Below, piece by piece: positions 15,731 through 42,391 of a stretch of DNA of 64,000 bases. The notes under the pieces were generated by a model. That model saw only the letters and a list, made by a program, of their open reading frames with translations. It did no database searches and had not been told where the DNA came from. The translations under genes and the position numbers were made by a program. Within the stretch, counting starts at the first letter, position 1. Every line of letters starts with the position of its first letter. Source of the DNA: Jatrophihabitans telluris (GTDB lineage Bacteria > Actinomycetota > Actinomycetes > Mycobacteriales > Jatrophihabitantaceae); contig NZ_CP097332.1 in assembly GCF_023516435.1 (NCBI RefSeq), forward strand, positions 372,001 to 436,000. Direction: 5' to 3'.

Positions 15731-15855
15731 GCGGGCGCGCAACGAGGGCAACCTCAACGGGGCGGGCGCGCAACGAGGGCAACCTCAACGGGGCGGGCAC
15801 GCAACGAGGGCAACCTCAACGGGGGCGGGCGCGCAACGAGGGCAACCTCAACGGT
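15731..15855. repeat. GTTG-core repeat array A (4 units), abutting the murB stop
   Basis: Four copies of the core GCAACGAGGGCAACCTCAAC, with cores starting at about 15739, 15770, 15801 and 15833 (period 31-32). The filler GGGCGGGCGC/A is specific to this locus. The last unit ends one base before the murB stop codon (15856-15858), so murB mRNA enters the array directly and reads the core as CGTTGAGGTTGCCCTCGTTG. Same core family as the arrays at 36.3, 39.2 and 42.3 kb. Confidence 0.9.
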
Positions 15856-16881
15856 TTAGAACGTGCAGTTGGCCAGATGGGCTTCCGGGCCCAGGCGAAT
15901 CCCGAAGCGTTGCTGTACGCCGTCCCGGATCACGGTGGCGAGATCCAGCAACTCCGCGGTCGTCGCGTTGCCACGGTTGGTCAACGCGAGGGTGTGCTTC
16001 GTCGAAACCGACACGCGACCGAGGCCGCGATCCAACCCGTATCCCCTCGTAAAGCCGGCTTGCTCGATCAACCACGCCGCCGACAGCTTCGTCTTGCCGT
16101 CGGCTGCCCACTGCGGGCAGTCCGCGGCCGCCGCGGGGACGTCGTCCAGCAGCGGATTCACGAAGAACGACCCGACGCTCCAGGAATCGTGGTCGGCGGC
16201 GTCCAGCACCATTCCCTTGGACCGGCGCAAGGCCAGCACGGTGTCGCGAACGTCGGCGAGGGGGGCCGTCTGCCCCGGCTCCAGGTCGAGGCGACGGGCG
16301 AGCTCGAGGTAGCGGATCGGACCGGATCGCTGCGAGCGCGGCAGGGCGAGGGTCACGTCGAGCACGACGTAGCGGTCGGTGTGCTTGAAGGCGGAGGTCC
16401 GAAAGCCGAAGCGGCAGCGCTGCGGTGTCCAGGACTCGACGCGACGGGTCTCACGGTCATAGATCGTCAGGGCCCGGAGCACGTCGGCGACCTCAGCCCC
16501 GTATGCCCCGACATTCTGGATCGGTGTCGCGCCGACCAGGCCGGGAATGCCCGACATCGTCTCCAGCCCGGCCAGGCCCTCGGAGATGCACCGCACGACG
16601 AGTTCATCCCACGGCACGCCCGCGGCCACGCGCAATAGCGTGTCCGAACCGTCCCGTCCCGTCAGCTCGATTCCGTCCGACGCGACCCGGACGACCAATC
16701 CCGGCCAGCCCTCGTCGCCGACCACGAGATTCGAGCCGCCGCCGACGATCAGCACCGATTCGCCGTTGCCGTCGGCCGTAGCCACCAGATCGGTCAGTTC
16801 CTCGTCGGACCCCGCGACGGCGACCCGAGCGGCCGGACCGCCCAGGCGCAGCGTGGTCATCTCGGCGAGGGTCCTAGGCAC
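15856..16881 (-). CDS. murB: UDP-N-acetylenolpyruvoylglucosamine reductase
   Basis: 341 aa. Reduces UDP-GlcNAc-enolpyruvate to UDP-MurNAc with NADPH and FAD in peptidoglycan synthesis. It starts with the FAD-binding PCMH fold (TTLRLGGPAARV, then VLIVGGGSNLVV), followed by MSGIPGLVGATPIQNVGAYG and GSFFVNP with the catalytic Ser region; the C-terminal segment is SAAWLIEQAGF. The spacing matches type I/III MurB. GTG 16881 has a TAGGCT -10 box 8 nt upstream, suggesting a leaderless mRNA. Its 3' end adjoins repeat array A. Confidence 0.95.
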   Translation of the reverse strand: MPRTLAEMTTLRLGGPAARVAVAGSDEELTDLVATADGNGESVLIVGGGSNLVVGDEGWPGLVVRVASDGIELTGRDGSDTLLRVAAGVPWDELVVRCISEGLAGLETMSGIPGLVGATPIQNVGAYGAEVADVLRALTIYDRETRRVESWTPQRCRFGFRTSAFKHTDRYVVLDVTLALPRSQRSGPIRYLELARRLDLEPGQTAPLADVRDTVLALRRSKGMVLDAADHDSWSVGSFFVNPLLDDVPAAAADCPQWAADGKTKLSAAWLIEQAGFTRGYGLDRGLGRVSVSTKHTLALTNRGNATTAELLDLATVIRDGVQQRFGIRLGPEAHLANCTF

Positions 16882-17195
16882 GGCTCGCCAGCCTACCGGC
16901 CGGGTCCTGGCCCGGACCCCGGCCGCCGACCTTCAGCGCCCTGCAGGCGGATGAGGGCCCGATACCGACCTGTGATCTTTACGTGAGATCTCATCACATT
17001 TGATGATGTCCGACCGATGTCGCGCACCGCAGACTCATCACGCGCCGAGCCTCACTCGGCGCGAGCGAGGCCCTGATCCGCTTGGTGTACTGGTCGCCCT
17101 CTGAGGCCAGGCGGGGAGTCAAAGGCGAAACCGGCGCTCTCCCGCAGTGCTGTCGCGGCATTCCGGTCGCGACTTCTTTTTTTCAGGGGGAACGA
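16882..17195. other. 314-bp gene-free region with a 9-bp hairpin
   Basis: It holds the murB leaderless -10 box (AGCCTA, 16890-16895, read on the minus strand) and a perfect hairpin, CGCGCCGAG (17041-17049), loop CCTCA, CTCGGCGCG (17055-17063). The hairpin lies 133 nt upstream of the TasA-like gene and could be a 5'-UTR element or terminator. A ribosome site, AGGGGG (17185-17190), serves the next gene. No open frame with coding features is seen. Confidence 0.5.
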
Positions 17196-17894
17196 ATGAG
17201 CAAGAAGAAGCTTGGCCGGATCGTGGGCTTCGCGGTCGCCGCCGGCGCAACCGCCACGATGGTTGGTTTCGCCGCCAGCAGCACCGGTGCGTACTTCACC
17301 GACGTGCACAACGGCAGCGTCAAGGCCTCGCTGGGCAACGTCAAGGTGAACACCTCGGACCTGAGCCTGAACTTCACCAGCTTGCTGCCCGGTGAGTTCC
17401 AGACCAAGACCATCAACTACACCGGAGCGGGCACGGGCGCCGAGGACATCTGGCTGGTGCTGCCCAGTGACGGCAGCGCGGCGGCCTTCAACGGCACTGG
17501 TGGCAGCGACGCCGCCCTCGGCCGCTACGGTCACTTCGCGGTGAGCTCGCCGGCCGGCAGCTTCACCTCCTACAACCTGGCCAGCCCGGGCAGCGGAATC
17601 CACTCAGGCGACAGCTGTGGCGTCGACGCCAACGGCCACGGCGGCAGCAACGACCAGGCCGCGGACAAGACCACTCTGGTGAACTTCTGCCCGGTCCCGA
17701 ACGCGATCCTGCTGTCGAGCAACCTCAGTTACGGCGAGTCCGCCTCGGCCGACGTCACCTACGGATGGACGAAGCTGCTCAAGGGCCCGAACCTGGACGG
17801 CGGCACCCCGTTGGCCCCGATCGCGTCCTTCCGCATCGTCGCGACCCAGCACGGAGTAACCCCGACGGACGTGAACAACAACCCGATCGGTTAG
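17196..17894 (+). CDS. TasA/camelysin-like secreted protein (SipW-dependent signal peptide)
   Basis: 232 aa. The signal region KKKLGRIVGFAVAAGATATM is followed by STGAYFTDVHNGS, resembling the A-Y-F-T-D segment of SipW-processed proteins (TasA, camelysin). The mature part is Gly/Ser/Asn-rich and beta-rich, with two Cys (DSCGV and NFCPV) that could pair. The next gene is a SipW-like signal peptidase, which supports the assignment. TasA relatives form extracellular fibres in Bacillus biofilms; whether this one polymerises is unknown. ATG 17196 has an AGGGGG site 5-6 nt upstream. Confidence 0.75.
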   Translation: MSKKKLGRIVGFAVAAGATATMVGFAASSTGAYFTDVHNGSVKASLGNVKVNTSDLSLNFTSLLPGEFQTKTINYTGAGTGAEDIWLVLPSDGSAAAFNGTGGSDAALGRYGHFAVSSPAGSFTSYNLASPGSGIHSGDSCGVDANGHGGSNDQAADKTTLVNFCPVPNAILLSSNLSYGESASADVTYGWTKLLKGPNLDGGTPLAPIASFRIVATQHGVTPTDVNNNPIG

Positions 17895-18077
17895 TTCCGA
17901 GCGCAGGACGACCGAAGCCCGGGGTCAGCCACCTGATCCCGATGAACTCCGGTGGGCCGTACCGGGTGCGGCCCACCGGAGCGGTCGTCGTGCCGCCGCC
18001 TTCACCCCCACCCGCAGCCCGCCCGCAGCACCGTCTGCAGTGCTATCCGGACCGGCCGACCCGACAGGAGACCACGC

Positions 18078-18644
18078 GTGATCATTCGACGTCGCCGGTC
18101 CCTGTTCGTCGCCGTGCTGACCGGCCTGGCGCTGCTCGCGCTGCTGGGAACCGGGATGCACCTGCGAGGGCAGGGATACCGGCTCTACGTCGTGCACACC
18201 GGATCCATGATGCCCACGTTGATGCCCGGTGATGTCGTGCTCGACCGCCCTGCGGACCGGGTGCCGGTCCGCGGCGAGATCATCACCTTCCGCCACTCGG
18301 ATGTGGTCACCGATGTCGTCACGCACCGGGTGGTCAGCACCAACCGGGGCCTCATCCAGACCAAGGGTGACGCCAACACGTCGGCCGACGTCTGGGATAT
18401 TCGCCCGAACCAGGTCCAGGGTGTCGTCCACACCAAGATCGCCAAACTCGGTTACCTGCTGGTGTTTCTCCAGCAACCGGCCGGTGTGAGCTCGGTGGTC
18501 AGCGGGCTGTTGGCGATGATCTTCCTGTGGGGTCTGTTCGAGGGACCGACCGACGCCCCGGCCACGGCACGCCAGCGCGGTGCTCACCGTCCGTCCGGCG
18601 GGCCGCGGCACCGCAGCTCGCTGCACGTCGCCCACACCGGCTGA
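18078..18644 (+). CDS. sipW: SipW-like (ER-type) signal peptidase I
   Basis: 188 aa. N-terminal TM (LFVAVLTGLALLALLGTGM), the catalytic-Ser motif VHTGSMMPTLMPGDVVL, then DVVTHRVVSTN, where His replaces the Lys of ordinary bacterial type I peptidases, as in SipW and eukaryotic signal peptidase. A second hydrophobic segment (VVSGLLAMIFLWGLF) precedes a basic tail. GTG 18078 has AGGAG 7 nt upstream. It lies 183 bp behind the TasA-like gene, its probable substrate. Confidence 0.88.
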   Translation: MIIRRRRSLFVAVLTGLALLALLGTGMHLRGQGYRLYVVHTGSMMPTLMPGDVVLDRPADRVPVRGEIITFRHSDVVTDVVTHRVVSTNRGLIQTKGDANTSADVWDIRPNQVQGVVHTKIAKLGYLLVFLQQPAGVSSVVSGLLAMIFLWGLFEGPTDAPATARQRGAHRPSGGPRHRSSLHVAHTG

Positions 18645-18726
18645 GGTCCGGGCCTGGCGATGTTCCGTCCGAAAATTCTGCCCTTCGCGGGACAAGCGGG
18701 GCGGTTTCGGGCTAGCGTCCGGACTC

Positions 18727-19221
18727 ATGGCTTCTGACATGTCACTCCCGGGCGCGTCCGTCGCGGCCGAGGACCAGCCCGCCGCGATGGACGAGACCGA
18801 CCGGCGGATCGTCGACGCGCTACGGGCGGACGGTCGGCTGTCCATGCGGGCCCTGGCCGAGCGGCTGCACATCTCCCGGGCCAACGCCTACGCCCGGGCT
18901 GAGCGGCTCCACCAGGCGGGGGTGATCACGGGGTACTCCGCGACGATCAACCCCCGCCGCTATGGCTACGGCCTGTCGGCCTACGTCTACCTCCGGATCA
19001 GCCAGCATTCGTGGCAGGAGATGCGCCGCCGGGTGATGGAGATTCCCGAGGTCGAGCACGGCTCGCTCGTGTCCGGTGAGTTCGACATCGTGCTGCTCGT
19101 GCGCACGCGGGACACAGCGACGCTGCGGGACCTGGTGCTCAGCCGGCTGCAGGCGATGCCGGACGTGCTGGGCACTCAAACGGTGTTGATCTTCGACGAG
19201 TTGGCCCCGGTCCGGGAGTGA
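18727..19221 (+). CDS. Lrp/AsnC-family regulator
   Basis: 164 aa. DETDRRIVDALRADGRLSMR with LAERLHISRANAYARAERL is the N-terminal AsnC helix-turn-helix (about 20-80). A RAM effector-binding domain follows (SAYVYLRISQHSW, VEHGSLVSGEFDIVLLVRTRD). It probably senses an amino acid. A TAGCGT -10 box ends 8 nt before ATG 18727, so the mRNA may be leaderless. No obvious target is adjacent. Confidence 0.9.
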   Translation: MASDMSLPGASVAAEDQPAAMDETDRRIVDALRADGRLSMRALAERLHISRANAYARAERLHQAGVITGYSATINPRRYGYGLSAYVYLRISQHSWQEMRRRVMEIPEVEHGSLVSGEFDIVLLVRTRDTATLRDLVLSRLQAMPDVLGTQTVLIFDELAPVRE

Positions 19222-19240
19222 GCCGCATCGCCGCAGTCAG

Positions 19241-19675
19241 CTAGCTGCTCTGCTTGCCCGTGGACAGCTCCCGGCGGGCCGCCTCGGCGATCTCGGCGTT
19301 GGTGTACGCATGCCCCGCGATGCCCCAGCCGCCGTCCGGTGCCTCGCTGATCAGCACCCAGGTGCGTTCGGTCAGGCTCGGGTCGCCGGCTGCGTCGGAC
19401 ACGATCTGGGTCATCTCGGCCACGACACCGAGCTTCTTGTCCCGGTCGAGGACACCAGCCGGGGTGAGCACGTCGACCCGGACGTAGTCGGCGGCCCCAT
19501 TGGCATTGGACAGCGCATCGGGCGGCAGCTCACGGACGAACGCCGCGGTGTTGTCGGAGAACAGGGAGATCGGTGGTACCCCCTCCCACCGCATCATGCA
19601 TTCGGCCAGGGCCCGGGTCAGGGCGGCCTTGTCGGCGAACGTCCCGACAGCTGCGGTTACATCGATCATCGGCAT
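19241..19675 (-). CDS. Tautomerase-superfamily protein
   Basis: 144 aa starting MPMIDV, with the Pro2 that is catalytic in 4-oxalocrotonate tautomerase/MIF-fold enzymes once Met is removed. A repeated beta-alpha-beta pattern is apparent (ADKAALTRALAECMMRWEGV in the first half, LDRDKKLGVVAEMTQIVSDA in the second). TWVLISEAPDGGWGIAGHAY is typical of the C-terminal strands. GAGGAG lies upstream of ATG 19675. It is divergent from a TetR regulator with two dyads between them, so is probably its target. The substrate is unknown. Confidence 0.75.
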   Translation of the reverse strand: MPMIDVTAAVGTFADKAALTRALAECMMRWEGVPPISLFSDNTAAFVRELPPDALSNANGAADYVRVDVLTPAGVLDRDKKLGVVAEMTQIVSDAAGDPSLTERTWVLISEAPDGGWGIAGHAYTNAEIAEAARRELSTGKQSS

Positions 19676-19707
19676 GGCGTGACACTCCTCGGACGGTTCC
19701 AGCAATT

Positions 19708-19762
19708 ATGATGTTCGTCATAGCGACCAGGCAGATGCTGGACTATGCCGGTCGTCATAGTC
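19708..19762. promoter_or_regulatory. Two candidate TetR operators
   Basis: GACTATG (19741-19747) and CATAGTC (19756-19762) are perfect inverted arms around CCGGTCGT. A weaker related dyad, TATGATGTTCGTCATA, lies at 19707-19722. Both are between the tautomerase and TetR genes and share TATG/CATA ends. They overlap in-frame ATGs upstream of the tetR gene, which argues that translation starts later, at GTG 19822. Confidence 0.6.
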
Positions 19763-19821
19763 AAGTGTCGGCCGGGTCCACCACACCGGCGGCGGCACTG
19801 CGTCAGTCGGGGGAGCAGCCA

Positions 19822-20445
19822 GTGGCCAGCGACAGCCGGGCCCGGATGGTTCGCAGTGCCGCGTCCTTGATCGCCTCTCGCGGGGTGAACGCGACGTCCT
19901 TCTCCGACGTCCTCGCCGACAGCGGCGCTCCGCGCGGATCGATCTACCACCACTTTCCCGAGGGCAAGGACCAACTCGCGGCCGAGGCGGTCCGGTGGAC
20001 CGGCGAACAGGTGCTCGCCTTCCAGCGCGCTGGTGAATTCGGCGGCGCCGTGGACGTACTCGATCGCTTCGTGGGCATGTGGCGACGCGTCGTGCTGTCC
20101 TCGGACGGACGCTCCGGCTGCGTGGTCGCCGGCGTCGCGGTTGACACGGGCACCGTCGGTGCCGCGGCCATCCGGGGCGGGGAGTACCCAGCGCCGGATG
20201 CGGACGACGGCCTGATCACCGTCGTTCGGCAGACCTTCCGGGCGTGGGTGTCGCTGCTGGCCGCACAGTTTGCCGGGGTGGGCATGCCGCCCGGGCGGGC
20301 GGACGCGCTCGCGGTCACCACGGTCGCCGCGTTGGAAGGAGCGCTCATCCTGTGCCGTGCCGAGGGCGGCGTCGGCCCGCTCGACGCGGTCGCCGCCGAA
20401 CTTGCTCGGTTGTTGCCGGACGCCGCTGTCGGGCCTGATGGGTAG
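19822..20445 (+). CDS. TetR-family regulator (LmrA/YxaF type)
   Basis: 207 aa. Helix-turn-helix in residues 5-50: RMVRSAASLIASRGVNATSF, then DSGAPRGSIYHHFPEGKDQL. The C-terminal ligand domain ends in the TVAALEGALILCRA segment common to the LmrA/YxaF subgroup. GTG 19822 has GGGGGAG about 7 nt upstream and gives the usual length; the frame stays open much further upstream, across the operators. It probably represses itself and the divergent tautomerase gene, and perhaps the PEP-mutase-like gene 9 bp downstream. Confidence 0.88.
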   Translation: MASDSRARMVRSAASLIASRGVNATSFSDVLADSGAPRGSIYHHFPEGKDQLAAEAVRWTGEQVLAFQRAGEFGGAVDVLDRFVGMWRRVVLSSDGRSGCVVAGVAVDTGTVGAAAIRGGEYPAPDADDGLITVVRQTFRAWVSLLAAQFAGVGMPPGRADALAVTTVAALEGALILCRAEGGVGPLDAVAAELARLLPDAAVGPDG

Positions 20446-20454
20446 CCTCCCCGC

Positions 20455-21246
20455 ATGATCAGTTTCCGCGAGCTGCACGTCCCGGGAACCCCGCTCATCC
20501 TGGGCAACGCCTGGGACCTCGGCTCGGCTCGATTGCTGGCCTCGCTCGGCTACCGCGCTGTGGCCACGACCAGCAGTGGTTTCGCGGCCACGCTCGGTCG
20601 CCATGACGGCCAGGTCAGCAAGGACGAGGCCCTCGCCCACGCCGGTCAGCTCGCGCGCGGCGTGCGGGTGCCCGTTTCCGCCGATCTGGAGAACGGCTTC
20701 GCCGACGACCCGGCGGGCGTGGCCGCCACGGTCGCCGAGGCCGCCGCGGTGGGTCTGGCCGGGTGTTCGATCGAGGATTACTCGGCCGCGCTCGGCATCT
20801 ATCCGACCGCGGCCGCGGTGGACCGGGTTGCGGCGGCCGCGGAAGCTGCCCGCGCGTGCGGTAGGGATTTCGTCCTCACCGCCCGGGCCGAAAACCTGAT
20901 CCGCGACAACCCCGACCTGGCCGACACGATCGCCCGGTTACAGGCCTACCAGGACGCAGGCGCGGATGTGCTGTTCGCCCCCGGTCTGCGCACCCTGGCT
21001 GATGTCCGGGTCGTGGTGGCCGCGGTCGACCGTCCGGTCAACGTGCTGCTGGTTCCGGGAGCTCCTACGGTCAGCGAGCTTGCCGATGCCGGCGTGGCCC
21101 GCGTCTCGGTTGGCGGCGGATTCAGCAAGGTCGGATTGGCCGCTGTGGCGAGCGCGGCGAGCGAGCTGCTCGAGCACGGCACGGCAGACTGGCAGCAACT
21201 GGCCGAACGGGCGAACCCGCTGATCGACACGGTTTTCCGCGGGTAG
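20455..21246 (+). CDS. Isocitrate lyase/PEP mutase superfamily enzyme
   Basis: 263-aa TIM barrel. Conserved features are NAWDLGSARLLASLGY, TTSSGFAATLG, VSADLENGF (Mg-binding Asp and Glu), CSIEDY, and LTARAEN. Members cleave or form C-C or P-C bonds next to a carboxylate (methylisocitrate lyase, oxaloacetate hydrolase, PEP mutase); none of the specific loop signatures of those enzymes can be distinguished here. TAGCCT ends 6 nt before the ATG, so a leaderless transcript inside the tetR stop region is possible in addition to read-through. Confidence 0.85.
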   Translation: MISFRELHVPGTPLILGNAWDLGSARLLASLGYRAVATTSSGFAATLGRHDGQVSKDEALAHAGQLARGVRVPVSADLENGFADDPAGVAATVAEAAAVGLAGCSIEDYSAALGIYPTAAAVDRVAAAAEAARACGRDFVLTARAENLIRDNPDLADTIARLQAYQDAGADVLFAPGLRTLADVRVVVAAVDRPVNVLLVPGAPTVSELADAGVARVSVGGGFSKVGLAAVASAASELLEHGTADWQQLAERANPLIDTVFRG

Positions 21247-21560
21247 TTCGCGACCACTGCCGATTCGAGTTCAATCAATCGAAACCTACTCTAAGCGCCA
21301 TTATCGTCCCGTGTCCGGACGAATCGTGGTTGCATGAAACCATGCCCATCCGCCGGACGTACGCCGCGGATTCGCACTTCTCACGCGTTGGCCCGCGACT
21401 CAGACTCACAGGCCTGACCAAGCCCGACCGGGCACTCTTTCCCGCAGCAACATCGTTGGCTCTTCCGCGTCTTCAGGGCTACTTGAGCGCTCGAGCAACT
21501 CTGCGCAACGTGACGGTCAGACGCCCGTTTCCGCTGCCGATAGGAGTGGACGAACGAGGC
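21247..21560. other. 314-bp region without a convincing gene
   Basis: An open frame continues upstream from the membrane protein at 21561 to ATG 21330, but the extra residues lack a hydrophobic or conserved pattern. The stretch 21270-21310 is AT-richer than its surroundings and may hold the promoter. No strong hairpin or repeat is seen. Confidence 0.4.
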
Positions 21561-22268: not shown

Positions 22269-22274
22269 GCACGC

Positions 22275-22712: not shown

Positions 22713-22903
22713 GGTTGCATCCAACCACCCGAGGGCGGTCTGCCGCTGGCCAACGTGATGCTCGCCCGCAGATCGCAGTCCCTGATCGAACCCGAACACT
22801 CCCTGCACGATGCGTCCACAGCTCATCCCTAGAACTGAGTCAGCCGCCGAACGGTGGCGCTCCCGGGTGATCGGCCCGCGGAGCCGAGGGAGGGACGTAG
22901 GAC

Positions 22904-24236: not shown

Positions 24237-24666
24237 GGTTTCAGTTCTACAGGCGCGCCCGCGAGCCGGACGCAGCGGCTGGGGGCAACGGGGCACCCGA
24301 CCTGAGTCGGCTGCCCGCACGATGCGGCCTGCTCGGCCAACCGGTTCAGCTGTCAGGGGCGCGGTTCATCGAGACGGCCTGTCGGAGCTGCTCAGCGGCG
24401 AGCGGCCGCTTTCCACCGTTACGGGTGGATCGTCATTGGTCAACTCGACCCGCCAACGTGCCGGGTCGGCGAGTCGACCACGCCACATCCCTCCGCCGTC
24501 CTATAACTTGAGGTGAGCGAAAGACCCTGCATGTGAGATGCCCACAAAGCGCGCGGCTTGTCGCGGTGCCGTGTCGGACGCCTGACACCCAAGGTGCAGG
24601 GTCGCGCTGCGTAGTCGCAGTTACACTCATTACAAGGTTGATCACGATGCGCGCAAAGGGGTAGCC
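24237..24666. other. 430-bp gene-free region upstream of the MarR regulator
   Basis: No open frame here has coding character. The right part (24590-24650) includes an AT-richer tract, TTACACTCATTACAAGG, which may hold the marR promoter or operator. CTGCG-TAGT-CGCAG (24607-24620) is a short hairpin. AAAGGGG before 24667 is the ribosome site of the next gene. Confidence 0.4.
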
Positions 24667-34717: not shown

Positions 34718-34768
34718 GCACCCGCCCCGCGGAGTGCCTCAGCGCGCGTCAGGACCTAGGAGAACGAT

Positions 34769-35179: not shown

Positions 35180-35182
35180 GCG

Positions 35183-35557: not shown

Positions 35558-35578
35558 CGGCCACTATCCTCTCTGCAC

Positions 35579-35680
35579 ATGGAACAGTTCTTCGTCATTG
35601 TGCTGATCCTGGGCGTGCTCGCGCTCGGCGGCCTGGCCGCGCTTGCGGTCACCAGGCTCGTCGGGGGTCAGCCTCGGTGA
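35579..35680 (+). CDS. Small membrane protein (33 aa) coupled to nitrobindin
   Basis: ATG 35579 to TGA 35680; one hydrophobic helix (FFVIVLILGVLALGGLAALA) and a short polar tail. Two things support it as a gene: its TGA overlaps the GTG of the nitrobindin gene (GTGA), and a TATCCT -10 box ends 8 nt before the ATG, placing the likely start of transcription at or near the ATG (leaderless). If so, it is the first gene of the nitrobindin transcript. The function is unknown; perhaps a membrane partner. Confidence 0.65.
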   Translation: MEQFFVIVLILGVLALGGLAALAVTRLVGGQPR

Positions 35681-36315
35681 CGCCTGATCCCATTGGACTG
35701 ACCGACGGGGACGGTCCGAACAGGCCCGGCGGGCCCTCCGGCACTGGCGTTCCCTCCGGCACTGGCGTTCCCTCCGCGACCGGCGTTCCCTCGATCGCCG
35801 ACACCACCGATCTGCGCTCCGGGCCGGAGATCAACGAAGCCCTGCTGGCGGTGTTGCCGCTGGTCGGGGAGTGGGCTGGCCACGGAACCGGGATCAAGCC
35901 CGCCAACGACGAACCGTTCGCCTATGCGCAGCGGATCAGTTTCGCCCATGATGGACGGCCCTTTCTGAGCTATTCATCGCACACCTGGCTGTTGTCCGAA
36001 ACTGGCTCGGTGCTTCGCCCTGCCTTCCGGGAGCACGGATTCCTGCGCATGGGCCCGGGCGGTCCTGGTACGGACGAGCTGGAGTGGGTGATGTGCAGTG
36101 CCGCCGGCATCGTGTCGGTTTTCTCCGGACTGGCCGGTGACCGGCGCTGGGAGTTTGTGACCGGCGCCGTCGGCTTCACCCCGACGGCCAAGGCTGTGGC
36201 CGGCGAGCGCCGGTTGTACGCGTTGGTCGCGAGCACCTTGGCCTACGTTCAGGAGCTGGCGATCGAGCCGGAGCAGTTCCGGCCGCATCTGCAGGCCGAA
36301 CTCGTCCGGGCCTGA
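35677..36315 (+). CDS. Nitrobindin-like heme protein (FABP family, DUF1794)
   Basis: 212 aa. After an N-terminal tail with three near-copies of PSGTGV (an 18-bp DNA repeat), the beta-barrel begins with LVGEWAGHGTG, the GxWxGxG motif. The C-terminal FRPHLQAELVRA has the conserved His that binds heme iron in nitrobindins. Relatives isomerise peroxynitrite to nitrate; Rv0813c is the M. tuberculosis counterpart in the same neighbourhood. The GTG start overlaps the small membrane ORF's stop. Confidence 0.88.
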   Translation: MTPDPIGLTDGDGPNRPGGPSGTGVPSGTGVPSATGVPSIADTTDLRSGPEINEALLAVLPLVGEWAGHGTGIKPANDEPFAYAQRISFAHDGRPFLSYSSHTWLLSETGSVLRPAFREHGFLRMGPGGPGTDELEWVMCSAAGIVSVFSGLAGDRRWEFVTGAVGFTPTAKAVAGERRLYALVASTLAYVQELAIEPEQFRPHLQAELVRA

Positions 36316-36325
36316 TTGGTTTTGC

Positions 36326-36477
36326 GTTGGCGTTGCCCTCGTTGCCCGCAACAAGGGCAACCTCAACGGGTGTGGGGACGCAACGAGGGCAACCTCAACG
36401 GGTGTGGGGCCGCAACAAGGGCAACCTCAACGGGTGTGGGGACGCAACGAGGGCAACCTCAACGGGTGTGGGAATGG
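36326..36477. repeat. GTTG-core repeat array B (1 inverted + 4 direct units)
   Basis: The first unit is inverted: GTTGCCCTCGTTGC (36332-36345), a 2-nt gap, then GCAACAAGGGCAAC (36348-36361), giving a hairpin with one G.T pair. Direct cores start at about 36348, 36380, 36412 and 36444 (exact 32-bp period) with the local filler GGGTGTGGGGAC. Units 1 and 3 have CAACAAGG, units 2 and 4 CAACGAGG. The nitrobindin transcript enters at the inverted unit, 11-16 nt behind its stop. Confidence 0.9.
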
Positions 36478-36481
36478 GAAA

Positions 36482-36629
36482 CCCCCGAGCCGGTCCACCG
36501 TGGACCTGTCGCCGATCGGACAAGCTCGGCGGCTCGGGGGCTGGAGGTTCTGCAGCTAGCGAACTAGCGGGCAGAATCCTCCTCGTGTGTCCGAGAGCTC
36601 ATCAAGTTCTGGACCACCTCCTTTCCCAT
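36482..36629 (-). ncRNA. Structured element with two hairpins and a 16S-tail-complementary tract
   Basis: Part 1 (36482-36540): CCCCCGAGCC pairs perfectly with GGCTCGGGGG, enclosing two hairpins (GGTCCA-CCG-TGGACC and GCCGA-N10-TCGGC), a three-way junction. Part 2 (36543-36582): GGAGG-TTCTGC pairs with GCAGAA-TCCTCC (one bulge) around GCTAG-CGAA-CTAGC. On the minus strand part 2 is preceded by GGGAAAGGAGGTGGTCC (36627-36611), which matches the complement of the 16S rRNA 3' tail at nearly every base. A 21-codon minus-strand frame (36629-36564), starting MGKEVVQ and ending HEEDSAR, covers this tract and stops in hairpin 2. Which is functional, RNA or peptide, is open. Confidence 0.45.
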
Positions 36630-36743
36630 ACGCAGAACACGGTACGACGGGACGGCCCGTAGTTCCAGCAGATTTCGCCCGAAGCGTGTCGAACCGCGTG
36701 CCGAGCCCCCCGGGCTGGCTGGATGCCGCCCTGGCGTGCCAGG

Positions 36744-37607
36744 TCAGAAGCCGGTGAAGGCCCTGATGCGGTCGGACAGGCCGGGGGTGTGCGGTAGCTG
36801 GATGCCGTCCAGGGTATGGATCCGGGCCGGACCGCGGCCGCTGGAGACGAGCCAGACTCCGTCGGTGGTGAGCAGCTCGTCTCTGCTTGCCAACGCATAG
36901 CGCGTGGGGAATCCGGAGGCTTCGGCCGCGGCGAACAAGGCCTTCTGTGTGATCGAGTCGAGAATGCCGGTGGCGCCCGTGGGAGTCGTGTGCAGCCTTG
37001 CGTCGGACAGCCAGACCACCGCGGCCGTCGGCGCCTCCAGTACGTACCCGTCGGTGGTGGTGAACAGCACGTCATCGGCACCGTGCGCTTCGGCAAAGCG
37101 TCCCGCGGCGACGTTGATCGCGTAGGACAGGGTCTTGACCCCGCCCAGCAGCCAGGGGGCCGCCGCGTAGGCGTCGCTGGACGTTCCGCGCGCGAGCGTG
37201 ATCACCGAGACTCCGTCACGCCGCTGGCGCAGCGACCGCTCCGCCAGAGGTGTCACGGTCGCGATGCCGGTGATCGGGCCGGACGGGGCCGATTCGCGGC
37301 CCCGGGTGATCATCAGCTTCAGCGTCGCCTCGCCGGGAACGTCCCAGGCACCCAGCACCGTCCGGACCAACTCTTGCCACGCGGTGACGTCGACGTCGGG
37401 TAGTCCGAGGGCATGCGAGGAGTGCTGAAATCGAGCCAGGTGCTCGGGCAGGTGGTCGATCCGGTGCGAGCCGTCGGCACCGGTGACGACGCGGGTCGCC
37501 TCGAAGCAGCCGTCCCCACGCGTCAGGCCGAGGTCATCGGAGCTCAGCACCTCCGCATCCGATTCGACAACTCCCCGGCCCAGCACAGCCACCGCCCGTT
37601 TCGTCAC
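36744..37607 (-). CDS. pabC: Aminodeoxychorismate lyase / class IV aminotransferase
   Basis: 287 aa, PLP-dependent fold type IV. RGDGCFEATRV opens the domain; the PLP Lys is in GGVKTLSYAINVAA; TTDGYVLEAPTAAVVW and TTPTGATGILDSITQKAL form the cofactor phosphate site (cf. the class IV LLxGITR pattern). Makes p-aminobenzoate for folate. GTG 37607 is preferred: TAAGCT ends 7 nt upstream (leaderless), and the open frame beyond lacks homology. A branched-chain or D-amino-acid aminotransferase is the alternative, but the position matches Rv0812. Confidence 0.82.
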   Translation of the reverse strand: MTKRAVAVLGRGVVESDAEVLSSDDLGLTRGDGCFEATRVVTGADGSHRIDHLPEHLARFQHSSHALGLPDVDVTAWQELVRTVLGAWDVPGEATLKLMITRGRESAPSGPITGIATVTPLAERSLRQRRDGVSVITLARGTSSDAYAAAPWLLGGVKTLSYAINVAAGRFAEAHGADDVLFTTTDGYVLEAPTAAVVWLSDARLHTTPTGATGILDSITQKALFAAAEASGFPTRYALASRDELLTTDGVWLVSSGRGPARIHTLDGIQLPHTPGLSDRIRAFTGF

Positions 37608-37658
37608 GCCGGGCAGCTTATCCCGGACCGCCGGCGACCGACCTACGATGAACAGACC

Positions 37659-38105
37659 ATGGACCACACGCACGCAATCGACGATGCCGCGCTGGCCGAG
37701 CGGCTGCGCGAACGAGGCCTGCGGATGACATCGCAGCGCGCGAGCGTTATGGCCGCTGTGACCAAGCTCGTGCACGCCACCCCCGATCAGGTGGCCGATG
37801 CCGTCCCAGAGATCGACCTCACCACCGTCTACCGCACGTTGGAAACGCTGGAAGAACTGGGCATCCTCGCCCACACCCACCTCGGCCACGGCGCACCGTC
37901 GTACCGGTTGGCCGACGACGACCACATCCACGTGGTCTGCCACCGCTGCTCATCGGTGACCGACGCGCCCCCCGAGCTTGCCGACAGCCTCGCTCGCCAG
38001 CTGGAATCCGAGCGCGGCTTCCTGCTCGATCGCTCACACTTCACCGTCTTCGGCACCTGCGCCGACTGCGCGGCCGACACCGCCTCGGCGGGAAGGACCC
38101 ACTGA
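37659..38105 (+). CDS. Fur-family metalloregulator
   Basis: 148 aa. Winged helix RGLRMTSQRASVMAAVTKLV with DLTTVYRTLETLEELGILAH. The metal site is DDDHIHVVCHRC; structural zinc Cys in CHRC and TCADC. A TACGAT -10 box ends 9 nt before the ATG. The TGA overlaps the ygfZ ATG by one base (TGATG). Which metal it senses (Fe, Zn or Mn) cannot be settled from these motifs. It is coupled to an Fe-S protein, which slightly favours iron or peroxide. Confidence 0.9.
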   Translation: MDHTHAIDDAALAERLRERGLRMTSQRASVMAAVTKLVHATPDQVADAVPEIDLTTVYRTLETLEELGILAHTHLGHGAPSYRLADDDHIHVVCHRCSSVTDAPPELADSLARQLESERGFLLDRSHFTVFGTCADCAADTASAGRTH

Positions 38106-39160
38106 TGGCTGACTACCGCTCACCGTTGCTCGACCGGCCCGGCGCGGTCGCCGCGGACGGCATCGACGCGGGCATCGCCTGGCACTACGGCAACCCGTTG
38201 GGCGAGCAGCGCGCCGCCGACACCACCGCCGTCCTGATCGATCGGTCGAATCGTGATGTCCTGCTCGTACCGGGACCGGACCGGCTGGGCTGGTTGCACG
38301 CCATCACCTCGCAGCACTTCGAGTCCCTGACCGAGGGAGCGTCCACCGAGTCACTCGTGCTCAGCCCGAACGGTCACGTCGAGCAGCACTGGAACGTCAC
38401 CGAACTCGGCGGCCAGATCTGGATCGACACCGAGCCGGGTGCCGCGGATGAGGTCCTGGGTTACCTGCTCAAGATGCGCTTTCTCAAGCAGGTCGAGCCC
38501 GCGATCGTGACGGCGGCCTTCGCGGTCCTGAGCGTGGTCGGCCCGTCGGCGCCGCTGGTGCTTGCCGCGTCCGGCCTGCCCGTGCCTGCCGACGCCGCTG
38601 TTCCGCTGGCCGATGGTGGTCTGGTCCGGGCGGTGCCGCGGGGATTCGACGTGATCGTCCCGCGGGCGGATCTGCAAAGGATTGCCGACGCGGTCATCGC
38701 TGCCGGTGCGGTCCCGGCCGGCTCCTGGGCCGATGATGCCCTTCGGATCGTTCGTCGTCAGCCCCGCCTGGGCGTCGACACCGACCATCGCACCATCCCA
38801 CATGAGCTGGCGTGGATCGGCACCGCGGTCCACCTGGACAAGGGTTGTTACCGGGGCCAGGAAACCGTCGCGCGGGTGCAGAACCTCGGTAAGCCACCGC
38901 GGCGACTGGTGCTGCTGCACCTGGCCGGCGAGAGCGAGCAATTGCCGCCGCCGGGCAGCCCGGTCGAACGGGACGGCCGGGTAGTCGGATTCTCCGGCAC
39001 GGCGGCCCACCACTACGAGTACGGACCGATTGCGCTGGCTGTGGTCAAGCGCGGGATCGGCGCGCAGGATGTGTTGTCGGTCGGCGGCCAGACCGCGGCT
39101 CTGGATCCGGATGACGCCGAGTTCGTGCCGGTCGAGGGATTCGCAGGTCACCGCGCCTGA
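38105..39160 (+). CDS. ygfZ: Folate-binding Fe-S assembly/repair protein YgfZ
   Basis: 351 aa, related to the T protein of glycine cleavage. The diagnostic motif KGCYRGQETVARV (Cys essential in E. coli) is present. The N-terminal folate domain contains LLVPGPDRLGWLHAITSQ. Supports maturation of Fe-S enzymes such as MiaB in a tetrahydrofolate-dependent way. Translationally coupled to the Fur-family gene. The stop lies 14 bp before repeat array C. Confidence 0.92.
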   Translation: MADYRSPLLDRPGAVAADGIDAGIAWHYGNPLGEQRAADTTAVLIDRSNRDVLLVPGPDRLGWLHAITSQHFESLTEGASTESLVLSPNGHVEQHWNVTELGGQIWIDTEPGAADEVLGYLLKMRFLKQVEPAIVTAAFAVLSVVGPSAPLVLAASGLPVPADAAVPLADGGLVRAVPRGFDVIVPRADLQRIADAVIAAGAVPAGSWADDALRIVRRQPRLGVDTDHRTIPHELAWIGTAVHLDKGCYRGQETVARVQNLGKPPRRLVLLHLAGESEQLPPPGSPVERDGRVVGFSGTAAHHYEYGPIALAVVKRGIGAQDVLSVGGQTAALDPDDAEFVPVEGFAGHRA

Positions 39161-39174
39161 TCACCGCCACCCTG

Positions 39175-39285
39175 CGTTCAGGTTGCCCTCGTTGCGAGCA
39201 ACGAGGGCAACCTCAACGGGGTTTGGCTCGCAACGAGGGCAACCTCAACGGGGTTTGGCTCGCAACGAGGGCAACGTCAACGGGT
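39175..39285. repeat. GTTG-core repeat array C (1 inverted + 3 direct units), running into crcB
   Basis: GGTTGCCCTCGTTGC (39181-39195), gap GA, GCAACGAGGGCAACC (39198-39212): a perfect 15-bp hairpin between the inverted unit and the first direct one. Direct cores start at about 39198, 39230 and 39262 (period 32) with the local filler GGGGTTTGGCTC. The third core reads GGGCAACGTCAACG, and its TCA is the crcB stop codon (39277-39279). Both flanking genes, ygfZ and crcB, therefore read into the array in the same sense. Confidence 0.9.
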
Positions 39286-39639
39286 GAAGGTGTAGCCGGC
39301 GGCGGCTGCGGCGATGCCGAGGACGACGCTCATGGCGAGGTATCCCACGGCGAGCAGGGATTTGCGACCCTGCCACAGTTCGACGGTCTCCACCGAGAAC
39401 GCAGAGAAGGTGGTCAGGCCGCCGCAGAATCCCGTTCCCAGCAAGGCCTTTCCGGTGCCGCCGAGCGAACCGCCCGTCACCGCGCCGAGGACGAGCCCGA
39501 GCATCAGGCAACCGACGAGGTTCACGGCAAGGGTGCCTACCGGGAAGGCCCAACCGAGCCGGTGTTTGAGGTAGCTGTCGCCCAGGTAGCGGACGGGAGC
39601 CCCGATCGCTCCGCCGAGCAACACGCACAACGCCGTCAC
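39277..39639 (-). CDS. crcB: Fluoride channel CrcB/Fluc, subunit 1
   Basis: 120 aa, four TM. Family motifs GGAIGAPVRYLGD, FPVGTLAVNLVGCLMLGL (pore Asn) and GFCGGLTTFSAFSVE (Phe-box and the Na-site region). Exports fluoride passively. The GTG start overlaps the upstream crcB's TGA (GTGA). The final codons and stop (FTR-stop) come from the last unit of repeat array C, so the repeat has shaped the C-terminus. Confidence 0.95.
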   Translation of the reverse strand: MTALCVLLGGAIGAPVRYLGDSYLKHRLGWAFPVGTLAVNLVGCLMLGLVLGAVTGGSLGGTGKALLGTGFCGGLTTFSAFSVETVELWQGRKSLLAVGYLAMSVVLGIAAAAAGYTFTR

Positions 39640-40112
39640 GGCAGCTCCGGGTCGAACGGATCGACGCCCTCATGGGTCCTGGCGACCCGCAGCCGAGGTT
39701 CGAGCCTCCGTAGGAGCGTCATCGCTCCGGCCGCCGCCGCGACACCTCCGAGCACGCTGAGCGCCGCGTAGGCGACCGCCGTGCCCAGGTGGGAATCGGC
39801 GAGCAGCGCGCGGTTCTCCGCCGCGAAGGTCGAGAAGGTGGTCCAACCACCCAGCAGCCCGGTGCCGAGACCGGGTCGGACGAGCCGGTGCGGGCGCCAG
39901 ATCTCGGTGACCGCGACCACCAGCAGCCCGAGCAGCATCGACCCGGACACGTTGATGACCAGGGTGCTCCACGCGATCGTGCCCGCCTCGACCGGCCACG
40001 CGGTGGCCACGCCGTAGCGGGCAAGACTCCCGAGCCCTCCTCCGGCGGCGATGACGGCCACCGATGCCCAGTCCGGACGGAACGGGGTGCGTCGCTCGAG
40101 CGTTGCGCTCAC
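39636..40112 (-). CDS. crcB: Fluoride channel CrcB/Fluc, subunit 2
   Basis: 158 aa. GGGLGSLARYGVA, AWSTLVINVSGSMLLGL and GLLGGWTTFSTFAAEN are the Fluc motifs. The extra 35 residues at the C-terminus are hydrophilic (RRLEPRLRVARTHEGVDPFD). Paired crcB genes are common in Gram-positive bacteria. Starts GTG 40112, overlapping the stop of the oxidoreductase (GTGA): three genes are in one coupled operon. Confidence 0.94.
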   Translation of the reverse strand: MSATLERRTPFRPDWASVAVIAAGGGLGSLARYGVATAWPVEAGTIAWSTLVINVSGSMLLGLLVVAVTEIWRPHRLVRPGLGTGLLGGWTTFSTFAAENRALLADSHLGTAVAYAALSVLGGVAAAAGAMTLLRRLEPRLRVARTHEGVDPFDPELP

Positions 40113-41101
40113 CCGAGCGCGTCCGGGTCCTCGGCGAAGGACACCCCCAGCTGGTCGAGGCACTGCTGCAGGATGGCCTGCACGGCCACGCTGTCGGCCA
40201 GCGGCATGATGGCGCTCTCGGTGCGTCCGGCGGCGAGGCATCCGGTCACCTCGGCGATCTCGTGGGCGTAGCCGTTGCCCGTCGGGGGCAGCACCAGCGA
40301 CTGTGGTTCCTCCGAGCCGAGGTGCAGGACGATCTCGGTGGGATGGTGGAATCGGGGGCGGACGTCGATCCAGCCGGTGGTCCCGAAGATCCGCGCGTGC
40401 CCGGGCATCGGGCTGTGCAGCGACGTCATGAGGGTCGCGTTGCGGCCGTCGTCGTAGCCGAGCAGGATGCTCACCCCGGCGTCCACCCCGGAGGGTTCGA
40501 GGGAACCGCAGGCGGTGACCGAATCGGGATTTCCCAGGAACCATTGGGCGAACGACGCCGGATAGACGGCGAGATCCAGCGTTGCGCCCCCACCCAGCTC
40601 GTGGGCGAAGATCCGGTCGGACGGGTCGAAGTCGCGGGTCACTCCGAGATCGGCCTGCACGGAGCGGACCTCGCCGATGGCGCCCTGTGCAACCAGTTCC
40701 CTGGCCCGGGCGACGGCGGGCTGGAAGCGCGTCCACATCGCCTCCATCGCGAATACCCCGGTCTCGCGCGCGACGGCAACGATGTCCTGCGCGCCGGCCA
40801 GGGTGGCGGTGAACGCCTTCTCCACCAGGACGGCCTTGCCGGCGCGCAGGGCCGCAACGGCGATCGCGTGGTGCTGCGGGTGCGGAGTGGCAATGTAGAC
40901 GACGTCGACGTCCGGCGCGTCGATCAGCTCCCGGTAGGACCCGTAGGCCGTGGGAATGTCGTGCCCGGCGGCGAAGGATCGGGCTCGATCGGGCGAGCGG
41001 GAGGCCACGGCCGTCAGTTGGGCGTCAGGCACTTGGGCGAAGTCGCCGGCCACGTTCGCGGCGATCCGGCCCGGCCCGATGATGCCCCACGAGATTGTCA
41101 T
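40109..41101 (-). CDS. Gfo/Idh/MocA-family oxidoreductase
   Basis: 330 aa. N-terminal Rossmann fold, WGIIGPGRIAANVAGDF, then VYIATPHPQHHAIAVAAL and VLVEKAFT, with the Glu-Lys (EKP-like) motif. The C-terminal part is an alpha/beta substrate domain (GGGATLDLAVYPASFAQWFL). NAD(P)-dependent sugar, inositol or dihydrodiol dehydrogenases are the likely range. First gene of the operon with two crcB genes, an unexpected pairing. TAGGCT ends 7 nt before the ATG (leaderless). Confidence 0.9.
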   Translation of the reverse strand: MTISWGIIGPGRIAANVAGDFAQVPDAQLTAVASRSPDRARSFAAGHDIPTAYGSYRELIDAPDVDVVYIATPHPQHHAIAVAALRAGKAVLVEKAFTATLAGAQDIVAVARETGVFAMEAMWTRFQPAVARARELVAQGAIGEVRSVQADLGVTRDFDPSDRIFAHELGGGATLDLAVYPASFAQWFLGNPDSVTACGSLEPSGVDAGVSILLGYDDGRNATLMTSLHSPMPGHARIFGTTGWIDVRPRFHHPTEIVLHLGSEEPQSLVLPPTGNGYAHEIAEVTGCLAAGRTESAIMPLADSVAVQAILQQCLDQLGVSFAEDPDALG

Positions 41102-41108
41102 GATGAGC

Positions 41109-41198
41109 AGCCTAGGGCGGACCGTGCGCGGTCGACCCGGGGAGTCGACACGGGAGTGTCCGCGAGTGGCTCGGAGCAGGACGCGCCCTCACTAGACT
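41109..41198. promoter_or_regulatory. Divergent leaderless promoters of the mocA-like and tsaD genes
   Basis: TAGGCT (minus strand, 41114-41109) ends 7 nt before the oxidoreductase ATG, and TAGACT (41193-41198) ends 6 nt before the tsaD GTG. Neither gene has a Shine-Dalgarno sequence. Transcription would start at or next to the start codon in both directions. Confidence 0.6.
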
Positions 41199-41204
41199 GG
41201 CCCG

Positions 41205-42233
41205 GTGACCATCGTCATGGGCATCGAGACCTCGTGCGACGAAACCGGTGTCGGCTTCGTCGAGAACGGCAAGCTGCTCGGTGACGCGTTGTCCTCGTCG
41301 ATGGCCGAGCACGTCCGGTTCGGCGGCGTCGTACCGGAGATCGCTGCTCGGGCGCATGTTTCCGCGCTCGTTCCGACGGTCCGCCAGGCGCTGAACAACG
41401 CAGACCTTTCTCTGGCCGACGTCGGCGCGGTGGCGGTGACGGCCGGGCCTGGCCTGGCTACCGCCCTGCACGTGGGCGTTGCCGCGGCGAAGGCCTATGC
41501 GCTCGCTCTCGACGTCCCGTTGTACGCGGTGCATCATCTGGCTGGGCACGCCGCCGCCGACACCCTCGAACACGGGCCGTTGCCGCCGCGGTGTGTCGTG
41601 CTGATCGTGTCGGGTGGCCACACCTCACTGCTGCTCGTCGAAGATCTGGTCCGCATCCCGATCGTGCACCTGTCCGACACCCTCGACGACGCGGCCGGCG
41701 AGGCGTTCGACAAGGTGGCGAGGGTGCTCGGTCTGCCCTACCCGGGCGGCCCGTCGATCGACCGTGCAGCCCGGTCGGGCGACCCGGCGGCGGTGGCGTT
41801 CCCGCGTCCGCTCACCGGGCCGGGCGATGACGCCCTGGGCTTCTCGTTCTCGGGCTTGAAGACCGCGGTGGCCCGCTACGTGGAGCGCGGACCGGCCGCC
41901 GGCGTCAGTGTTGAGGACATCGCCGCGTCGTTCCAGGAGTCGGTCGCCGACGTGCTCACGCTCAAGGCGCTGCGGGCCTGTCGGGCGATGGAGGTGGACA
42001 CCCTCGTCATCGTCGGGGGCGTCGCGGCCAACTCGCGAATCCGAGCGCTGGCCCAGCAACGCTGCGACGAGGCGGGCGTCGAACTCCGGGTCCCCCCGAT
42101 GCGGTTGTGCACCGACAACGGGGCCATGATCGCGGCCATCGGAGATCTCCTGGTGCAGGCGGGGGCAGCCCCGTCACCGGAGCGGTTCCCGGCCACCCCG
42201 ACGATCCCGCTCACGGACGCCCAGCTGTACTGA
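41205..42233 (+). CDS. tsaD: tRNA threonylcarbamoyladenosine synthase subunit TsaD
   Basis: 342 aa, ASKHA fold. [15 protein letters not shown] at the N-terminus, metal-binding [34 protein letters not shown] and [12 protein letters not shown]-like [13 protein letters not shown] near the end. Transfers the threonylcarbamoyl group to A37 of ANN-reading tRNAs. The GTG start has TAGACT 6 nt before it. tsaB/E are not adjacent. Repeat array D begins 4 bp behind the stop. Confidence 0.97.
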
Positions 42234-42237
42234 CCCC

Positions 42238-42391
42238 GCGTTGACGTTGCCCTTGTTGCTCGCCCACCTGCGTTGACGTTGCCCTTGTTGCTCGCCCGCC
42301 AGCGTTGACGTTGCCCTTGTTGCTCGCCCGCCAGCGTTGACGTTGCCCTTGTTGCTCGCCCGCCCGCGTTGACGTTGCCCTTGTTGCTCTC
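42238..42391. repeat. GTTG-core repeat array D (5 units) behind tsaD
   Basis: Five direct copies of GTTGACGTTGCCCTTGTTGC, at 42240, 42272, 42304, 42336 and 42368 (exact 32-bp period), with filler TCGCCCGCCAGC or close variants. The core differs from the other arrays at two places (GAC for GAG, CTTG for CTCG). It reads in the tsaD sense and starts 4 bp after its stop codon. There is no inverted unit here. Confidence 0.9.

What the first reader, a model, noticed from the sequence alone, without database searches (positions are those of the whole stretch)
15731..42391. A dispersed 32-bp-period 3'-UTR repeat family with a fixed orientation relative to the upstream gene
Four arrays (15731-15855, 36326-36477, 39175-39285, 42238-42391) share a core that in sense reads GTTG-N2-GTTGCCCTY-GTTGC. 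Periods are 31-32 bp. The filler between cores is almost constant inside an array but different at each locus, so single units moved and then expanded locally. In all five gene-to-array junctions (murB, nitrobindin, ygfZ, crcB, tsaD) the mRNA enters within 0-16 nt of the stop codon and reads the same strand. The spaced GTTG triplets stay fixed while N2 and Y change (AG/C, AC/T, GC/C). This looks like a defined element acting behind genes (mRNA end formation, a protein-binding site, or a mobile terminator) rather than random satellites. I know no named family with this core.
Basis: partly seen in the sequence, partly recalled or inferred. Interest (0 to 1): 0.88.

Follow-up and report, generated by a model that had tools for sequence, protein, structure and literature searches.

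The report
Species-specific repeat arrays behind genes
One bacterial species has sprinkled about five hundred copies of a 20-letter DNA word through its genome, mostly right behind the ends of genes, facing the same way as the gene and multiplied on the spot at a strikingly regular spacing; it looks like a gene-end marker, but what it does is unproven.

Summary
The window holds 18 cores in four clusters (0.07 expected). The genome has about 525 copies (<=1 mismatch); 396 other genomes of the order have 0-3 each, so this is a burst in one lineage.

In a systematic half-genome sample, 37 of 56 primary arms start -5 to +24 nt from a co-oriented stop codon (random intergenic placement: 7%). In 12 the core itself supplies the TGA stop. 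Same-direction neighbours sit 31, 32 or 33 bp apart (17/160/1 of 178); opposed neighbours face 3' to 3' in 21 of 21.

The filler is mostly local flank: 25 of 44 arrays fit one 32-bp duplication around a single core, breakpoints anywhere (null 1.5%). So single cores arrived and were amplified in place with core-to-core distance held constant.

Position resembles REP repeats. But the core is not palindromic, head-to-tail copies dominate, and the genus has no RAYT-type transposase (0 of 9).

Best guess: protein-read gene-end boundaries (transcription termination or insulation); inferred, not shown. Main rival: a selfish repeat tolerated behind genes. 16 of 56 primary arms lack a co-oriented upstream gene.

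The parts
15739..15852 (-). Array A: 4 direct cores (AG/C), pitch 31-32 bp, reading away from murB
   Evidence: first core 3 nt after the murB stop
15856..16881 (-). murB, gene upstream of array A
   Evidence: PF02873 and PF01565
36326..36345 (+). Array B, single plus core (GC/C), 10 nt after the nitrobindin-like gene
36348..36463 (-). Array B, 4 minus cores, pitch 32 bp; one of them faces the plus core across 2 bp
36473..36631 (-). Ms_IGR-5 sRNA match lying directly upstream (minus sense) of the array B minus arm
   Evidence: RF02471, 46 bits against cutoff 45
35677..36315 (+). THAP4-like heme-binding (nitrobindin) gene upstream of array B plus core
   Evidence: PF08768
39176..39195 (+). Array C, single plus core (1 mismatch), 15 nt after ygfZ
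39198..39281 (-). Array C, 3 minus cores, pitch 32 bp; the one next to crcB contains the crcB stop codon
   Evidence: TGA at 39277-39279 on the minus strand
38105..39160 (+).
   Evidence: PF01571
39277..39639 (-). crcB, gene whose stop is supplied by array C
   Evidence: PF02537
42240..42387 (+). Array D: 5 direct cores (AC/T), pitch 32 bp
   Evidence: first core 6 nt after the tsaD stop
41205..42233 (+). tsaD, gene upstream of array D
   Evidence: PF00814

Best explanation
A lineage-specific, REP-like gene-end element. SHOWN: most loci carry an asymmetric core, (C)GTTGASGTTGCCCTYGTTGC(NNG), at or just behind a gene end. It reads in the gene's direction and sometimes supplies the stop codon. 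In most arrays it was multiplied in place by tandem duplications whose breakpoints fall anywhere but whose step is held at 31-32 bp, and in 21 of 52 clusters it is faced by an opposed core. INFERRED: the constant core-to-core distance, irrespective of filler sequence, and the near absence of lone cores mean that neighbouring cores work together, most simply as sites for a sequence-specific protein bound on one face of the DNA at about three helical turns. INFERRED: the bound array marks the end of the transcription unit, stopping or slowing RNA polymerase leaving the gene and insulating convergent genes. Dispersal of the single core by an unidentified copying process is inferred from the species-specific burst.
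For: Placement: 37 of 56 primary arms start -5 to +24 nt from a co-oriented stop; of the 40 arms with a co-oriented upstream gene, none starts between 25 and 200 nt. Convergent gaps hold 21 of 51 clusters against 194 of 1080 gaps (p 9e-5); divergent gaps 6 of 51. Pitch: 31/32/33 in 17/160/1 of 178 same-direction neighbours, with any offset up to 120 bp allowed; 21 of 21 opposed neighbours face 3' to 3', 10 at 22 bp and 6 at 33 bp, the latter with unrelated centres. Filler is local flank: 25 of 44 arrays reach 0.83 match under one breakpoint against 1.5% null, breakpoints spread 0-11. Of 52 real clusters one has a single core, and a decayed second core lies 32 bp on. Arrays fill the gap: 3 of 18 convergent gaps with arrays keep a hairpin of -20 kcal/mol or better outside the array against 66% of 168 without arrays. 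At the ygfZ/crcB junction relative G002 has an inverted repeat of unrelated sequence where this genome has the array.
Against: No transcript, binding or termination data. 16 of 56 primary arms have no co-oriented upstream gene (one at a stretch edge), six of 51 clusters lie between divergent genes, one (1308147) overlaps a gene call, and Rfam finds no RNA gene beside the 16. The hairpin depletion in array-bearing convergent gaps is largely a matter of the little space left (median 35 nt): length-matched it is 30% against 45%, n = 10; in co-directional gaps 40% of 20 against 56% of 594. 19 of 44 arrays do not reach the flank-match mark. Adjacent opposed arms pair no better than shuffled arms (1.19 against 1.28 unpaired positions; a quarter of shuffles do as well). 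No candidate binding protein was found. Pitch constancy could reflect a ruler in the duplication process rather than selection. Outside the sample there are steps of 33 and one of 42, and an opposed pair at 32.
Confidence: 0.42

Rival explanations
1. A selfish short repeat (REP/MITE-like) with no host function: a trans-acting enzyme copies the core, insertions survive only behind genes, and slippage expands them.
For: Burst of about 525 copies here with 0-3 in 396 other genomes of the order, none at the 21 tsaD ends of relatives that could be read. In two stop-in-core genes with an aligned relative, the relative's protein runs further at the C-terminus, as if insertion had cut them short. This genome has many other local tandem repeats.
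Against: Safe landing alone does not explain why no co-oriented arm starts between 25 and 200 nt, why pitch stays at 31-32 bp with free breakpoints, or why lone cores are missing. No Y1 transposase in 9 of 9 genus genomes. crcB, whose stop is also in the core, ends about where the G002 protein does (by eye).
Confidence: 0.27
2. RNA-level terminator: opposed cores form an intrinsic-type hairpin and the C-rich sense filler of direct arrays loads Rho once the ribosome has left at the stop codon.
For: 18 opposed pairs fold at -27 to -49 kcal/mol (windows of 44-62 nt) against a median of -13.9 for random 44-mers. Sense filler is 48% C and 30% G; C exceeds G in 36 of 51 untied arrays without motif positions. 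Position right behind the stop.
Against: 31 of 52 clusters have cores in one direction only, and single units fold no better than random (median -12.2). The 12 nt behind all called stops are also C-rich (C over G in 853, G over C in 508). Adjacent arms pair no better than shuffled. Rho explains neither a 32-nt pitch nor a 20-bp fixed core.
Confidence: 0.14
3. Translational safety device: TGA in every core at a pitch not divisible by three gives stop codons in all frames behind the gene, in the sense direction only.
For: 46 of 47 arms with three or more cores carry stops in all three sense frames; 35 of 47 carry none antisense. 12 of 56 primary arms supply the gene's own stop. TAACTGA repeats in Beggiatoaceae share the three-frame property (PMC4679880, abstract and passages).
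Against: Needs three letters per core, not twenty; 28, 29, 34 or 35 bp would serve as well as 31-32 but are not seen in the sample. Opposed arms and arrays between divergent genes are unexplained.
Confidence: 0.07
4. DNA topology or nucleoid site (gyrase or architectural protein) as for E. coli BIMEs, placed behind genes and between convergent genes where positive supercoils gather.
For: Convergent enrichment, helical-scale spacing, precedent of BIME-2 binding gyrase (PMC2817692, passages).
Against: No likeness to a known gyrase site was tested. Only about 109 loci (extrapolated from 52 clusters in 47.7% of the genome) and strict dependence on the stop codon.
Confidence: 0.1

Closest known systems
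REP / BIME / GTAG- and CGTC-tagged repeats (PMC3733652 and PMC2817692, passages seen)
   Same: Short repeats in many copies; mostly behind coding regions, convergent ones mostly <20 bp from 3' ends, in convergent or co-directional gaps; GTAG termini often give the stop codon to flanking ORFs; copies reiterated in tandem with flanking DNA; families can differ between related strains.
   Different: REPs are palindromic stem-loops with a GTAG or CGTC tag, mostly head-head or tail-tail dimers with head-tail rare, GTAG ones tied to RAYT transposases, and the flanking DNA taken along is of variable length. Here the core is asymmetric and untagged, head-to-tail dominates (178 against 21 opposed), no tail-to-tail pair is in the sample, pitch is nearly fixed, and no RAYT-type gene was found in the genus.
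TAACTGA direct repeats of Beggiatoaceae (PMC4679880, abstract and passages seen)
   Same: Dispersed intergenic direct repeats with a preferred orientation to genes; stop codons in all three frames in one direction.
   Different: Heptamers, mostly just before start codons; spread over several phyla.
MIRU of mycobacteria (recalled, no call)
   Same: Actinobacterial, oriented with the genes, overlap with stop codons, tandem copies.
   Different: Longer units inside operons, repeated as whole units without locus-specific filler (recalled).
AAAGTCCTACNNNNGCGTCG half-site of relative G002
   Same: Dispersed half-site of one lineage; used as a head-to-head pair at the same ygfZ/crcB junction.
   Different: 27 sites, unrelated sequence, six opposed pairs 26 bp apart among them; no tandem arrays of it in the one contig read.

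Membership tests
REP (GTAG/CGTC) | stem-loop palindrome in each unit | tested here: not met
   44-nt unit windows fold at median -12.2 against -13.9 for random genomic 44-mers; by eye only a 4-bp stem (GAGG/CCTC), lost in AC variants
REP (GTAG/CGTC) | terminal GTAG or CGTC tag | tested here: not met
   base counts at 20 positions of 251 units: GTTG...TTGC
REP (GTAG) | RAYT (Y1_Tnp) gene in the genome | tested here: not met
   PF01797: 0 of 9 genus genomes; control rings in 5 of 14. Loss after spread is possible
REP (GTAG/CGTC) | close behind gene 3' ends, convergent or co-directional gaps | tested here: met
   37 of 56 primary arms within 24 nt; 45 of 51 clusters in convergent or co-directional gaps
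REP/BIME | opposed or alternating dimers prevail | tested here: not met
   178 same-direction neighbours against 21 opposed
Intrinsic terminator | GC-rich hairpin followed by a T run | tested here: not met
   18 opposed pairs form a hairpin, but I saw no T run behind them by eye, and single units have no strong hairpin
CRISPR array | constant repeat with different spacers within an array | tested here: not met
   adjacent fillers within an array are 91% identical (113 pairs), between arrays 43%
MIRU | long unit (recalled) shared whole between loci | tested here: not met
   only a 20-24 bp core is shared between loci; the MIRU feature itself is recalled

The most novel reading that the evidence does not exclude
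A one-species gene-end code: a dedicated sequence-specific factor reads a 20-bp word that must occur at least twice at about three helical turns (or head-to-head at two or three turns), measured from the stop codon. The genome acquired the word at about a hundred gene ends in recent evolution, in at least one place where a relative has a hairpin instead: a recently rewired transcription-termination or insulation system.
Probability: 0.25. Interest if true: 0.85.

Novelty: new variant of a known kind. Interest (0 to 1): 0.64.

Why it matters
If true, it shows a bacterium spreading a short, non-palindromic word to about a hundred gene ends in one lineage and keeping it at a nearly fixed pitch. 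That would make the birth of a gene-end system visible while it is recent, with relatives as the before state. It also gives a clean test of whether REP-like repeats are parasites or parts: pitch, stop-codon distance and orientation are three separate constraints that can each be broken by mutation.

Tried and rejected
RAYT-driven REPs: no Y1_Tnp in 9 of 9 genus genomes. Sharing with other taxa: the tandem-pair scan of genome contigs gave one hit, L036, which on reading is a different, degenerate TTGCCG-rich repeat. Exact core in viral contigs: 4 loci, each with one copy and no second copy at <=4 mismatches in the piece held. RNA genes beside the exceptional arrays: Rfam on the 14 stretches that hold all 16 gave one match, 2 kb from its array. 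Hairpin pairing as the selected feature: arms no better matched than shuffled. Common ancestral filler: between-array identity 43% and the flank test speak against it. Arrays of the same pitch in relatives: none of period 31 or 32 in 40 stretches (800 kb) of 6 relatives; that count left out periods divisible by three, so 33 was not examined. Reverse transcriptase as mover: one PF00078 match at G000:C1:534608-535258, also in 2 of 8 genus relatives; not pursued. Naming the organism: the search for related loci gave nothing.
Full report
OBSERVATION. GTTGNNGTTGCCCTYGTTGC has 18 matches with <=3 mismatches in the window against 0.07 expected, and TRF finds periods 31-32. First cores lie 3, 10, 15 and 6 nt behind murB, nitrobindin, ygfZ and tsaD. 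The crcB stop codon is the TGA inside the core. The minus arm at 36348-36463 follows an Ms_IGR-5 sRNA match.

GENOME. The window is 372001-436000 of a single 4,193,897-bp contig, GC 68% in the sample. The core occurs 261 + 265 times with <=1 mismatch; the reversed pattern 0 times. With the refined core GTTGASGTTGCCCTYGTTGC the count is 260 + 265, and 0-3 in each of the other 396 genomes searched in the order. Tandem pairs: 125 + 141 here, 0 in 23 other genomes of the family. One scan of 84,980 species genomes for tandem pairs gave only L036, a different low-complexity repeat; records of this genome or very near ones may be left out of that scan.

SAMPLE. Genes were called with a home-made codon-context model (1671 genes, 86% coding), so single gene calls can be wrong. 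255 units with <=3 mismatches form 56 clusters. Four clusters are lone imperfect matches inside gene calls and were dropped as chance, leaving 52 clusters and 251 units. Window clusters B, C and D are not in the sample; A is.

ANATOMY. Per-position counts over 251 units: A at 5 in 249, G or C at 6 in all but 2, T or C at 15 in all but 5, and one base in at least 93% at each of the other 17 positions. Same-direction neighbours within 120 bp: 31 bp 17, 32 bp 160, 33 bp 1, nothing else. Opposed neighbours: '+ then -' 21 (22 bp 10, 33 bp 6, and 34, 38, 55, 55, 84), '- then +' 0. Outside the sample, the array near 24294 has steps of 33, 33 and 42, and near 360759 an opposed pair stands at 32. The rows that one search lists, allowed to be 28-36 bp, are all 31-33. 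The six 33-bp opposed pairs have unrelated centres, so that spacing recurs independently.

ORIGIN OF ARRAYS. Fillers are 91% identical within arrays (113 adjacent equal-length pairs) and 43% between arrays. For 44 of 55 arms with at least two cores (11 with an opposed core close behind were left out), filler was compared with the sequence before the first and after the last core: 25 of 44 reach 0.83 under a single breakpoint, against 1.5% with other arrays' fillers; breakpoints range from 0 to 11; 19 of 44 fall short, and the match beyond the breakpoint is slightly above its null (0.30 against 0.22). That is the mark of tandem duplication of a 32-bp segment of arbitrary phase around one core. 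The step is fixed though the unit boundary is not. One of 52 clusters shows a single core, and its sequence has a decayed second one 32 bp on.

PLACEMENT. Counting each cluster's longest arm (ties both; 56 arms), 40 have a co-oriented upstream gene; 37 of these start -5 to +24 nt from its stop and the other three at 201, 358 and 567. Random intergenic placement and orientation gives 42% and 7%. Of the three far ones, at 4066945 the gene call ends in the TGA of the second core. Twelve arms supply the gene's stop. The remaining 16 have an upstream gene on the other strand (15) or none, at a stretch edge (1); one of them (1308147) overlaps a gene call. Rfam on the 14 stretches holding all 16 found no RNA gene beside them. 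Convergent gaps carry 21 of 51 clusters against 194 of 1080 gaps (p 9e-5), divergent 6 of 51 (p 0.03); a few gaps hold two clusters, so these are not fully independent. 22 of 52 clusters lie in the last fifth of the contig (p 2e-4, a cut chosen after seeing the data).

RELATIVES. tsaD was found in all 23 other family genomes, one only as a fragment; 21 of the 23 ends could be read for up to 200 nt and by eye none carries an array. Contig C74 of relative G002 is syntenic with window 21.5-48.5 kb. There ygfZ and crcB are separated by a 21-bp inverted repeat with one mismatch and of unrelated sequence. It belongs to a dispersed half-site: AAAGTCCTACNNNNGCGTCG has 27 sites with <=1 mismatch in G002, control 0 (G002 only); a narrower pattern gave 13 in G002, 1 in G010 and 0 in the other 22 family genomes, the window's included. 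At tsaD and nitrobindin G002 has no array. Five array-bearing genes had a relative in the stretches fetched (identity over 45%, reaching the C-terminus): two with the stop in the core (353136, 4123248) end before their relatives' proteins; 144609 and 3611916, with the array behind the stop, end as the relatives do; 3687918 hit the same relative locus as 144609 and is not independent. Against a general shortening, crcB of the window, stop in the core, ends within a residue or so of the G002 protein (by eye). No arrays of period 31 or 32 in 40 stretches of six relatives.

FUNCTION TESTS. Opposed pairs fold at -27 to -49 kcal/mol (18 pairs, windows of 44-62 nt); 44-nt windows round single units have median -12.2 against -13.9 for random DNA. 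Convergent gaps with arrays keep another hairpin of -20 kcal/mol or better in 3 of 18 cases against 66% of 168 without arrays, but they have little room left; length-matched the figures are 30% against 45% for 10 gaps, and in co-directional gaps 40% of 20 against 56% of 594. Opposed arms pair no better than shuffled. 31 of 52 clusters have cores in one direction only, twelve of them between convergent genes. 46 of 47 arms with three or more cores give stops in all sense frames, 35 of 47 none antisense. Sense filler is C-rich, but so is the DNA behind all called stops.

INTERPRETATION. Arbitrary duplication phase with fixed step, recurrent opposed spacings with unrelated centres and missing lone cores all say that what matters is the distance between cores. 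That is most easily understood for a protein on DNA; 31-32 bp is about three turns, 22 and 33 about two and three (10.5 bp per turn is recalled). Why the first core must lie so near the stop is best explained by a role at the end of the transcription unit. Neither step is proven. A selfish repeat with a ruler in its amplification is the main rival.

LITERATURE. REP families share the 3'-end position, convergent gaps, stop-codon supply and tandem growth with flanking DNA (PMC3733652, passages; PMC2817692, passages; PMC12306157, passages on E. coli REPs <=15 nt from stops). They differ in palindromy, tag, dimer orientation and transposase. TAACTGA repeats share the three-frame stop property (PMC4679880, abstract and passages). 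Eight topic searches of the held library listed no paper on such an element by title or abstract start, and a search for the core letters in either strand found 0 papers. Most subscription papers are not held, so 'undescribed' is limited to that.

Noticed in passing
window 17057-17145 (+): c-di-GMP-II-GAG riboswitch match (RF03169, 45.1 bits) just ahead of a 233-codon gene call at 17196-17894; the longer ORF reading from 17082 has no Pfam hit.
   Followed up: no
G002:C74:22061-22107 and 93353-93399, and other G002 contigs: A different dispersed bipartite half-site AAAGTCCTACNNNNGCGTCG (27 sites), six opposed pairs 26 bp apart among them, in a relative of the window's genome.
   Followed up: partly
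G000 sample stretches, intergenic: Other repeated intergenic 14-mers, e.g. TTCGGGCCGCGAAA (8 one-kb bins) and CGAATGGGCAGTTC (5), and many short local tandem repeats, mostly of period 15-30.
   Followed up: no
G000:C1:534608-535258 (-): One reverse-transcriptase-domain gene (PF00078, E 9e-17), 2.4 kb from a core at 532180; matches also in two genus relatives, which lack the arrays.
   Followed up: no
window 39277-40736 (-): Two CrcB-domain reading frames in a row.
   Followed up: no
window 43611-43834: 27-bp tandem repeat, 8.3 copies, inside a gene call at 42981-43862; the longer ORF there (42546-43862) has no Pfam hit.
   Followed up: no
L154 (G019), behind tsaD: A long near-perfect palindrome directly behind the tsaD stop in a relative, another gene-end hairpin of unrelated sequence (by eye).
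   Followed up: no
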